Source: Natronococcus occultus SP4 (lineage in GTDB: Archaea; Halobacteriota; Halobacteria; Halobacteriales; Natrialbaceae). Taken from it: DNA of 64,000 bases. Each line of letters begins with the position of its first letter. The stretch's first letter is position 1. This document shows positions 45,709 to 48,864 of the stretch, piece after piece. The stretch covers positions 1,603,001 through 1,667,000 of the forward strand of contig NC_019974.1 of the NCBI RefSeq assembly GCF_000328685.1. The letters run 5' to 3'. The notes under the pieces were generated by a model that was not told the origin of the DNA, did not search any database, and saw only the letters and a list, made by a program, of their open reading frames with translations. The translations under genes and the position numbers were made by a program.

Positions 45709-46746
45709 TCAGTGTAGCGAGTAGATGTGTCGTTCGTACACCGACCGAACCCGATCCCCCCAGTCGTGGGTGTAAGTGTCGATAACGTCGTCGGCCACGT
45801 CACCCCGGAGGTATTTGACGATCCCCCGGTCCCCCGTTCGGTCCCGCAGGTGGGTCGTGAAGAAGTGCCGGAAGTAGTGGGGCGTGACGTTCTCGGTCGC
45901 TCCGCCGCCGGTTCGGTACCAGCCGCGCTCGCGGGCGTGTTTCTCGACGATGTACTGCACGTCCGCCGGTTCGAGTCGTTCCCCCCAGCCGTCGCCGGTA
46001 TCGAGAAAGAGCGGATCCGCCGGCGATAGTGGGTCCGGACGGATCGCCAGCCACTCGAGCAACACTCGCCGGAGTTCGTCGTCGACGGGGATCACCGTCT
46101 CACGCTCGCGTTTGTTCGAGGCCGTTCGCTTCTCGCCGTTGATCGTTTGCCCGCGAGCCGGTTCCGAGGAGACAAACAGCGAGGCGGGGCGTCGTTCGAG
46201 CTGTACCCGGGGCGTCCACTCGAGATCGAGTTCGGGAACCGCGAGGTGGCAGTCCCGAAGATCGAGGTTACAGAGTTCCCCGACCCGCATTCCCGTCTTC
46301 AGCAGCGTGACGACCGCGGCCCGCTCGAGTGGATGGGAGACCGAGCCGACGAACTCGCGCATCTCCGGCACCGAGATATCTCGTCGGGTCGGGTTCGTGT
46401 CAATCGATTCGGACAGCTCCTCCATCACGAGCACCATCGGGTTCTCCTCGAACGCGCCGACCTGGGTCATGTACTCGTAGAAACGGTTGAGGTACGAGGC
46501 GTAGGTCGCGATCGTACTCGATGCGAACCGGTCGCGAAGCGAGTGGACCCAGGCCATACACTCCCGCCGACCGACCGTTGACACCGACTCGGCGTCGAAG
46601 CGCTCGCGGACGAACGCCTCGAACTCGCGGAGCACCCGTTCGTAGGCCTCGAGGGTGCGCTCGCTCTTTCCGTGGTAGCGCTGGTCGTCCAGAAAGTACG
46701 CGATCGGGTCCTCGATCGCGTCGGGGGCGTCGGCGCTACTCGCCAT
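45709..46746 (-). CDS. Tyrosine recombinase / integrase (XerC/D-like)
   Basis: A 345-residue site-specific recombinase. An N-terminal SAM-like core-binding domain (about 10-115) is followed by the catalytic domain. Arg154 (TGMRVGELCNL), Lys212 region, His290-xx-Arg293 (PHYFRHFFTTHL) and nucleophile Tyr325 (VIDTYTHDW) are all present, so it should be active. It was started at MASSADAPDAIEDPIAYFLD, overlapping the previous gene by 11 bases. Such XerC-like genes with a DUF5805 partner occur in many haloarchaeal chromosomes and are not always viral. Confidence 0.93.
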   Translation of the reverse strand: MASSADAPDAIEDPIAYFLDDQRYHGKSERTLEAYERVLREFEAFVRERFDAESVSTVGRRECMAWVHSLRDRFASSTIATYASYLNRFYEYMTQVGAFEENPMVLVMEELSESIDTNPTRRDISVPEMREFVGSVSHPLERAAVVTLLKTGMRVGELCNLDLRDCHLAVPELDLEWTPRVQLERRPASLFVSSEPARGQTINGEKRTASNKRERETVIPVDDELRRVLLEWLAIRPDPLSPADPLFLDTGDGWGERLEPADVQYIVEKHARERGWYRTGGGATENVTPHYFRHFFTTHLRDRTGDRGIVKYLRGDVADDVIDTYTHDWGDRVRSVYERHIYSLH

Positions 46747-47125
46747 CGTCCCCGACGATCGTGTACCCGCCATGGCGGCCACTGTACCGGACGCGGTTCT
46801 CGGCCTGGAGCTCCTCGAGCGTCTCGTCGAGCCGTGACTCGATGTCGTCGCTGACCGCTTCGAGGAGTTCGTCCCACGTGTAAGTGTCATCGGATAGTAA
46901 CTCGAGGAGACGTGTTTCGAGGCCGTTACCCCCAGGGTCTGCGTCCGGAGAACCGGGTTCCTCGGTCCCCCCCTGGAAGCCTCGCCGTCCGGCCTGGACC
47001 ATCGTTCGGAGGAACTCGCTCTGGCTCATGTCGAGCTCGTCGGCGTGATCCTGCCACTCCGCTTTCTGGTACGCGGGGACGTAGGTTTTGACCGCAGTTC
47101 GAGAGGTGTCCTGGGAATCCGCCAT
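46736..47125 (-). CDS. DUF5805-like DNA-binding partner of the integrase
   Basis: A 129-residue protein starting MADSQDTSRTAVKTYVPAYQ. The first 50 residues (KTYVPAYQKAEWQDHADELD, MSQSEFLRTMVQAGRRGFQ) look like a ribbon-helix-helix unit. The C-terminal half (LLELLSDDTYTWDELLEAVS; ENRVRYSGRHGGYTIVG) looks like a winged helix. This matches the DUF5805 proteins found before haloarchaeal integrases. Overlap with the recombinase gene implies joint expression and perhaps a directionality or accessory role. Confidence 0.8.
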   Translation of the reverse strand: MADSQDTSRTAVKTYVPAYQKAEWQDHADELDMSQSEFLRTMVQAGRRGFQGGTEEPGSPDADPGGNGLETRLLELLSDDTYTWDELLEAVSDDIESRLDETLEELQAENRVRYSGRHGGYTIVGDDGE

Positions 47126-47504: not shown

Positions 47505-47880
47505 GTTGACATCCTCCTCCGCCTGAAGGCGGAGGAATCCCGAGCGGTGGGGGTTTCAGGTTTGCAGTCCAATCGGTGGACTACCAGCCCTTTCGAGTAC
47601 GGGTAGTCCCACAACATCGGACTGGTGGACTGCTGGCGGCGCCAAACCGCCGGTACTCCTCTCCTCAGTTTCGTTGACTCTCAACTGTTGTTTTTGCCAG
47701 TAGGGAGTCGCTGACACATCAACGGACGTGGAGTTATCGTGGGTTTGCTCAACCGACAGGCACGAGACGAACCCTTCTGGGATTCGCGTTCACCGCGTCG
47801 GCGGTTCGGATACTGTCTCGTTGGGTGGCGGGTAGACCGCCTCCGACAGTCGTTCGGAATCCACTCCGCTCCAACCTGAC
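47505..47880 (-). mobile_element. Decayed right end of an IS200/IS605 (IS1341/TnpB-type) element
   Basis: On the minus strand the end reads ...CCTCCGCC-TTCA-GGCGGAGG followed by AGGATGTCAAC. This perfect 8-bp hairpin (47516-47535) and terminus are typical of the 3' end of haloarchaeal TnpB elements, which also encodes the guide (ωRNA) scaffold. A minus-strand frame of 77 codons (47556-47789) reads like a TnpB C-terminal tail (LRVNETEERSTGGLAPPAV, VVGLPVLERAGSPPIGLQT). No RuvC domain and no left end are found, so the element is a remnant. The upstream limit is approximate. Confidence 0.55.
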
Positions 47881-48171
47881 CTCACTATTATGTAAATACT
47901 CCTTCATGAGGGAGGCATTGATTTGAAGCTCGGACTATGCTAATGTCGATGTAATGTATCACTCAGTGATGGTCCGTATCCACGCCGTGAACGACGTGGT
48001 ACTGTGCCTGTTTAACGTATAATACTCTCATCTGACTAACAGAGACTGTAGATTTGCTTCTCGTATTGAGAGAGAAGATACTATGTGGTATTCGTATATT
48101 TGCTCGATTCGTTCACACGGTCTTCCAGGCTGGATTCGTCGCCAGTGAGGATATACTGTTTGAGATGTTGA

Positions 48172-48864
48172 TCAAGTTGCGAGTGTTTTTTTGAAACAGT
48201 TGATAAACGCTTGCGGACGTTCTCCGCTTCGGTCTTTAAGCGAGTGCGCCAGCATATCTCTCGTTATCGGTTCTCCCCAGTTCTTTGCCGTGGAGAGAAA
48301 GAGCCGATCAGATCCGCTATCCGGTCTGATAGTTAGATACCGAATTAGTTCTCGCTCTACCACGGGAGGTAAGGGCAGTGTAGTCGCTCGAGAACGGGAA
48401 CGCGAAGACGCATTCTCTCGACCCGGAACGACTTCGAGTACTGGGTTCGTAGTATGCGCGATTTCGAAGTGTTCCGCTACAGCTTGGTCTGAGCAGTCGT
48501 AATCGTGCAGTTCCAGGTTACAGAGTTCTCCAGACCCGATACCGTAATACACGAAGAGAACAGTCGCAGCACGCCAAAATGGATGATCAACAGTTTGGAG
48601 GGGGCGACGTGCCCCGGATGGGGTAAGCAAAAGCTGGTATGAGTTCGTGTTTTGTAGCGCCGCAGGCTCGTTTTGGATTCGTTTGCCTTCGGATTTCGTA
48701 TGACACTCCTTGCATAGCGTTACCAAATTGGAGAGTTCGTTCGATCCACCAACCGAGAGGGGGACGATATGGTGAACTTCTAGCCGCTGTTCCGAACTGC
48801 AGTTCATACACTGATGACCGTCTCGTTCTAGGACTTCCTCTCGAAGTGTTTCCAGGCTGACCAA
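48172..48864 (-). CDS. HNH nuclease fused to degenerate tyrosine-recombinase domain, 3' frameshift
   Basis: A 230-codon frame. Residues 10-56 are an HNH/McrA-type domain: Cys19-xx-Cys22, HH at 31-32 in LEVHHIVPLSVGGSNELSNL, then Cys51-xx-Cys54-His55. Residues 96-220 align by eye with the neighbouring integrase (YYGIGSGELCNLELHDYD versus TGMRVGELCNLDLRDC; IRYLTIRPD versus LEWLAIRPD). The catalytic Arg is Gly110 here and the HxxR/Tyr part is missing. The frame ends after an A7 run (48186-48192). One base fewer would extend it to 48081 with a recombinase-like tail (LDQHLKQYILTGDESSLEDR). The start is a TTG at 48864; no ATG is available in frame. Confidence 0.7.
   Translation of the reverse strand: MVSLETLREEVLERDGHQCMNCSSEQRLEVHHIVPLSVGGSNELSNLVTLCKECHTKSEGKRIQNEPAALQNTNSYQLLLTPSGARRPLQTVDHPFWRAATVLFVYYGIGSGELCNLELHDYDCSDQAVAEHFEIAHTTNPVLEVVPGRENASSRSRSRATTLPLPPVVERELIRYLTIRPDSGSDRLFLSTAKNWGEPITRDMLAHSLKDRSGERPQAFINCFKKTLAT

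What the first reader, a model, noticed from the sequence alone, without database searches (positions are those of the whole stretch)
48081..48864. HNH nuclease domain fused to a degenerate tyrosine recombinase, with A7 frameshift
An HNH domain (Cys19/22, HH31-32, Cys51/54-His55) is followed by a region that aligns by eye with the catalytic domain of the integrase 1.4 kb away, but the catalytic Arg is Gly110 and the HxxR...Tyr end is absent or altered. An A7 run at 48186-48192 separates the main frame from a further 37 codons that read like a recombinase tail. Either this is a decaying gene, a sequencing error, or a real chimera in which a dead recombinase fold targets an HNH nuclease to DNA sites. 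The last idea is inference, but I know of no named family with this architecture.
Basis: partly seen in the sequence, partly recalled or inferred. Interest (0 to 1): 0.72.

Follow-up and report, generated by a model that had tools for sequence, protein, structure and literature searches.

The report
HNH nuclease joined to dead recombinase
The stretch is a broken copy of an unnamed salt-loving-archaea protein family in which a DNA-cutting HNH domain is joined to a Xer recombinase domain that kept its fold but lost its cutting residues; intact copies sit beside the archaeal Xer recombinase genes and on two viruses, which suggests a nuclease steered to recombination sites.

Summary
ORF 48172-48864 (-) is HNH followed by a Xer-type catalytic domain whose first catalytic Arg is Gly110. 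It is no chance remnant: 10 haloarchaeal or viral copies have full-length open frames (about 280-300 aa), 9 more are decayed. Profiles, trees and a predicted structure show both domains in intact members. All 12 fusions aligned have ArgI changed to Gly, no HxxR His and no Tyr nucleophile; 22/22 neighbouring Xer proteins keep all five catalytic residues. dN/dS of comparable intact pairs is 0.14-0.19, so the dead domain is maintained. Sixteen of 19 copies lie beside DUF5805, 15 with its Xer gene; two intact ones lie on tailed-virus contigs.

The window copy is decaying: against a syntenic Natronococcus jeotgali copy it has the extra A of the A7 run, a 1-nt loss at its 5' end and a TAG stop. Best reading: a low-GC accessory or selfish HNH nuclease docked by a dead Xer fold on sites of the linked DUF5805-Xer system. 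Architecture and linkage are shown; cleavage and target are inferred. In two families DUF5805 copies are truncated near a codon-constrained motif, but intact motif and intact fusion coexist in two genomes, which weakens simple homing.

The parts
48172..48864 (-). HNH-dead-Xer fusion, decayed copy (230-aa open frame, TTG start)
48691..48810 (-). HNH domain (residues 19-58), motif residues intact
   Evidence: PF01844 1.2e-13; invariant columns
48175..48621 (-). Xer catalytic-domain-like part (residues 82-230)
   Evidence: low-confidence window model with XerA as best Foldseek match (E 4.9e-3)
48535..48537 (-). Gly110 codon, in place of catalytic ArgI
   Evidence: Gly in 12/12 fusions, Arg in 22/22 Xer
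48186..48192 (-). A7 run; syntenic relative has A6, so +1 frameshift
48036..48188 (-). Former C-terminal tail in the shifted frame, interrupted by TAG 48081-48083 (CAG in relative)
48852..48853 (-). One A missing relative to N. jeotgali (5' frameshift)
46739..47125 (-). DUF5805 gene (129 aa), single copy in this genome, operon partner of xer1
   Evidence: PF19121 7.4e-30
46928..46938 (-). ACCCTGGGGGT: codon-constrained motif inside DUF5805, near which related copies are truncated
45709..46746 (-). xer1: intact Xer-type tyrosine recombinase (345 aa)
   Evidence: PF00589 3.2e-13; all catalytic residues

Best explanation
Shown: this is a decayed member of a haloarchaeal protein family in which an HNH nuclease domain replaces the DNA-clamping N-terminal domain of a Xer-type tyrosine recombinase, and the recombinase catalytic domain is preserved as a fold but stripped of its catalytic residues. 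The gene is low-GC, patchily present, often decaying, linked to the DUF5805-Xer operon, and also carried by tailed haloviruses. Inferred: the dead Xer domain docks the HNH nuclease on DNA bound by the Xer system (by direct DNA recognition and/or by pairing with active Xer subunits), and the HNH domain nicks or cuts there. This would help the low-GC cassette (fusion, and in some genomes its own DUF5805-xer2) install itself at the resident DUF5805-xer locus, much as a homing nuclease does. After fixation the nuclease gene decays, as in this window.
For: Both domains over Pfam cut-offs in intact members. One profile of 10 intact fusions matches XerC-like 4a8e at 3.1e-11 with its C-terminal part and IscB/McrA HNH at 1e-9 to 1e-11 with its N-terminal part. 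The model of an intact member (pLDDT 80, pTM 0.81) matches XerA, Cre and lambda Int. ArgI, His and Tyr are lost in 12/12 fusions while 22/22 Xer keep them. dN/dS 0.14-0.19. The fusion domains form one clade apart from Xer, support 90/82. 16/19 copies sit beside DUF5805, 15 with xer. Fusion GC3 0.33-0.57 against about 0.8 for resident xer1. Nine of 19 copies decayed. Resident DUF5805 lacks codons 1 to about 60 beside the cassettes, ending at the stretch with the strongest codon constancy.
Against: No cleavage or binding has been measured. Two genomes (G118, G137) carry an intact fusion next to an intact DUF5805 with the motif or a close variant, so simple 'cuts this motif' homing does not fit them. 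No N-terminal DUF5805 fragment lies beyond the cassettes, so the insertion mechanism is unclear. Truncations in one family may descend from one event. The recombinase half is only weakly recognised in some members (for example L085: PF00589 at 0.031).
Confidence: 0.42

Rival explanations
1. Host-useful partner of Xer: the fusion joins Xer tetramers as a catalytically dead subunit and its HNH domain nicks or processes the synaptic DNA, regulating the direction or timing of recombination.
For: Tandem gene order fusion-DUF5805-xer in eight genomes, window included; fusion overlaps DUF5805 in place of xer in G226; purifying selection.
Against: Very patchy (about 19 copies found in roughly 420 genomes of the order) and often decayed, unlike DUF5805, found in 20/20 genomes tested; virus copies have no Xer of this kind beside them.
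Confidence: 0.22
2. Virus-host conflict gene: viruses use it to cut or block the host Xer locus or competing proviruses, and chromosomal copies are captured remnants or defences.
For: Two intact copies on contigs with terminase and portal genes, one of them in IMG/VR; low GC.
Against: Most copies are chromosomal at one conserved locus, and the only hits in PADLOC are to the HNH part.
Confidence: 0.16
3. Dead Xer domain is a dominant-negative inhibitor of Xer and the HNH domain only supplies DNA binding.
For: Loss of catalytic residues with conserved fold.
Against: HNH motif residues are invariant in the 10 intact members, which suggests catalysis.
Confidence: 0.1
4. Chance fusion remnant or sequencing error.
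For: Two of the three lesions in the window are homopolymer indels.
Against: Ten intact homologues, dN/dS well below 1, third lesion is a substitution.
Confidence: 0.03

Closest known systems
Archaeal XerA / Xer tyrosine recombinases (PDB 5hxy, 4a8e)
   Same: Fold and sequence of the C-terminal catalytic domain
   Different: ArgI, His and Tyr missing; N-terminal core-binding domain replaced by HNH
HNH endonucleases of PF01844 (nearest solved HNH domains: IscB, EcoKMcrA)
   Same: Complete HNH motif with zinc cysteines
   Different: No RuvC, guide RNA or modified-base domain seen; fused to a Xer fold
HNH homing endonucleases
   Same: Patchy, often decaying, low-GC, linked to one locus
   Different: Not in an intron or intein; target not shown; Xer-derived domain instead of a known homing DNA-binding domain
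IMEX (mobile elements exploiting host Xer, e.g. PMC5357621)
   Same: Association of mobile DNA with a Xer system
   Different: These cassettes can carry their own xer; no att pair demonstrated

Membership tests
Tyrosine recombinase | Catalytic-domain fold | tested here: met
Tyrosine recombinase | Catalytic R-K-H-R-Y set | tested here: not met
   ArgI, His and Tyr 0/12; ArgII 10/12
Tyrosine recombinase | N-terminal SAM-like core-binding domain | tested here: not met
   HNH in its place
HNH endonuclease (PF01844) | HNH motif and score above cut-off | tested here: met
HNH endonuclease (PF01844) | Nuclease activity | not testable with these tools
   needs protein
IscB | RuvC halves and score above the NCBIfam cut-off | tested here: not met
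   42-68 bits against 175, HNH part only
Homing endonuclease | Cuts the unoccupied allele, occupied allele immune | tested here: inconclusive
   DUF5805 truncated near the motif beside cassettes, DUF5805#2 lacks the motif; but G118 and G137 carry both motif and intact fusion
IMEX / Xer-integrated element | att sites at both ends | tested here: inconclusive
   one junction seen; no second junction with the DUF5805 N-terminus
Known anti-phage system | Full-length match in PADLOC | tested here: not met
   HNH-only matches

The most novel reading that the evidence does not exclude
A natural cut-and-replace element: a nuclease aimed by a dead Xer domain breaks the resident DUF5805-xer operon, and the same cassette supplies a motif-free replacement DUF5805-xer2 copy.
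Probability: 0.15. Interest if true: 0.88.

Novelty: new variant of a known kind. Interest (0 to 1): 0.62.

Why it matters
It would be a new way to aim a nuclease: a retired recombinase used as a targeting domain. It also singles out DUF5805-Xer, found in every one of the 20 haloarchaeal genomes tested, as a unit that mobile DNA repeatedly attacks or accompanies, which may help to find the still unknown Xer sites of haloarchaea (a 2020 review of Haloferax volcanii leaves the role of its XerC/D-like genes open, PMC7776575).

Tried and rejected
Sequencing error alone: rejected because of the TAG substitution and of independent lesions in relatives. Programmed frameshift at A7: rejected, because intact members need none and lesions elsewhere lie at other positions. 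A reversible invertible switch of DUF5805 N-termini: considered because the motif core is inverted in G078, dropped because DUF5805#2 carries no such motif and only one arrangement is ever seen. Phage and plasmid collections: no full-length relatives, only HNH or integrase matches. XerA equivalog model: no gene above its cut-off in 7 genomes. Papers: no record of DUF5805; HNH is not mentioned in the review of archaeal tyrosine recombinases. A search of 247 genomes drawn from the phylum found no member outside the order.

Full report
What is there. The - strand frame 48864-48172 encodes 230 aa with a Pfam HNH domain at residues 19-58, E 1.2e-13. Aligned with the integrase of the window, the rest of the protein follows its catalytic domain, with Gly at the place of the first catalytic Arg.

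This copy is broken. Natronococcus jeotgali (G088; named) has the same gene at the same place. Against it the window has an extra A in the A7 run, lacks one A near the 5' end, and has TAG where the relative has CAG; the relative has two other 1-nt losses. Both lack about 15 residues before the TPxxxR motif. Changes between the two still favour third codon positions (29/18/54 by position; p 2.5e-5) with dN/dS 0.24, so decay is recent.

The family is real. A search of 125 genomes of the family and 392 of the order (overlapping sets) gave 10 full-length open frames and 9 decayed or partial copies. Intact ones score above the Pfam cut-offs for both HNH (1.3e-10) and Phage_integrase (2.2e-8, 34.5 against 27.1 bits) in Natrinema hispanicum. 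A profile of the 10 intact members matches XerC-like 4a8e (3.1e-11) with its second half and IscB/McrA-type HNH with its first. An AlphaFold model of the N. hispanicum protein (pLDDT 79.8, pTM 0.81) has XerA, Cre, Tn1549 Int and lambda Int as best solved matches. The window copy itself gives a poor model (pLDDT 63.8) with XerA as best, weak match, E 4.9e-3. No model in Pfam, NCBIfam, PHROGs or PADLOC was found to cover both domains.

The recombinase half is dead but kept. In 22/22 neighbouring Xer proteins Arg, Lys, His, Arg and Tyr are all present. In 12 fusions ArgI is always Gly, His is always replaced, and the segment with Tyr is missing; the second Arg is kept in 10. The window row ends at its frameshift and so does not itself test Tyr. 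An invariant Tyr does remain near the C-terminus of the 10 intact fusions; by its neighbours it matches a later, non-catalytic Tyr of Xer, but spacing alone does not settle this. Intact pairs with dS that is not saturated give dN/dS 0.14-0.19; other pairs are saturated. Fusion domains form one side of a branch (90/82) apart from Xer, the window copy being a long branch. HNH residues are invariant in the 10 intact members.

Where it lives. DUF5805 was found in all 20 genomes tested, usually as a single copy, and is followed by a Xer gene at the loci read. The fusion lies directly upstream of it in eight genomes including the window, or convergent to a second DUF5805-xer2 pair in six more plus a remnant. 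In G226 it overlaps a DUF5805 copy between sdhB and sdhA (the sdh names are read from the sequences, not searched). Two intact copies lie on contigs with terminase and portal genes. Fusion genes have GC3 0.33-0.57; resident Natrialbaceae xer1 about 0.8.

Breaks in DUF5805. In the genomes with the convergent cassette the other DUF5805 copy has lost codons 1 to about 60, and its homology to empty relatives starts at or slightly left of ACCCTGGGGGT; in G078 the core reads inverted. The same happens in two Halorussus-type genomes, where the truncated copy belongs to a different Xer clade. Codons 56-69 of intact Natrialbaceae DUF5805 show the strongest codon constancy of the gene (232 of 20000 shuffles reach it). 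This makes the motif a candidate recombination or cleavage site, not a proven one.

Mechanism. Shown: architecture, loss of catalysis-critical residues, selection, linkage, decay. Inferred: that the dead domain aims the HNH domain at Xer-bound DNA, and that cutting helps the cassette establish. Intact motif together with intact fusion in G118 and G137 speaks against the simplest homing version.

Noticed in passing
window 47515-47719 (-): Rfam sot0042 match (7.9e-10, below gathering score) inside a stretch with a 79% identical copy elsewhere in the genome (G000:C1:1258003-1258503): probably a short IS605/TnpB-derived element between DUF5805 and the fusion.
   Followed up: partly
window 46928-46938 and relatives: ACCCTGGGGGT motif with codon constancy inside DUF5805; related DUF5805 copies are truncated next to it, once with the core inverted (L042:10151).
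   Followed up: partly
L039, L040, L042, L043, L044, L091 upstream of DUF5805#2: Palindromes of the type CACAAATAA-N6-TTATTTGTG (most complete in G057, G065 and G066) within about 100 bp upstream of DUF5805#2; possible operator or Xer site.
   Followed up: no
L084 8280-9579: DUF5805 copy and fusion overlap by 50 bp and sit between genes that look like sdhB and sdhA.
   Followed up: no
L196, L082: Halorussus-type genomes carry a decaying second xer with truncated DUF5805 head-to-head with the resident pair.
   Followed up: partly
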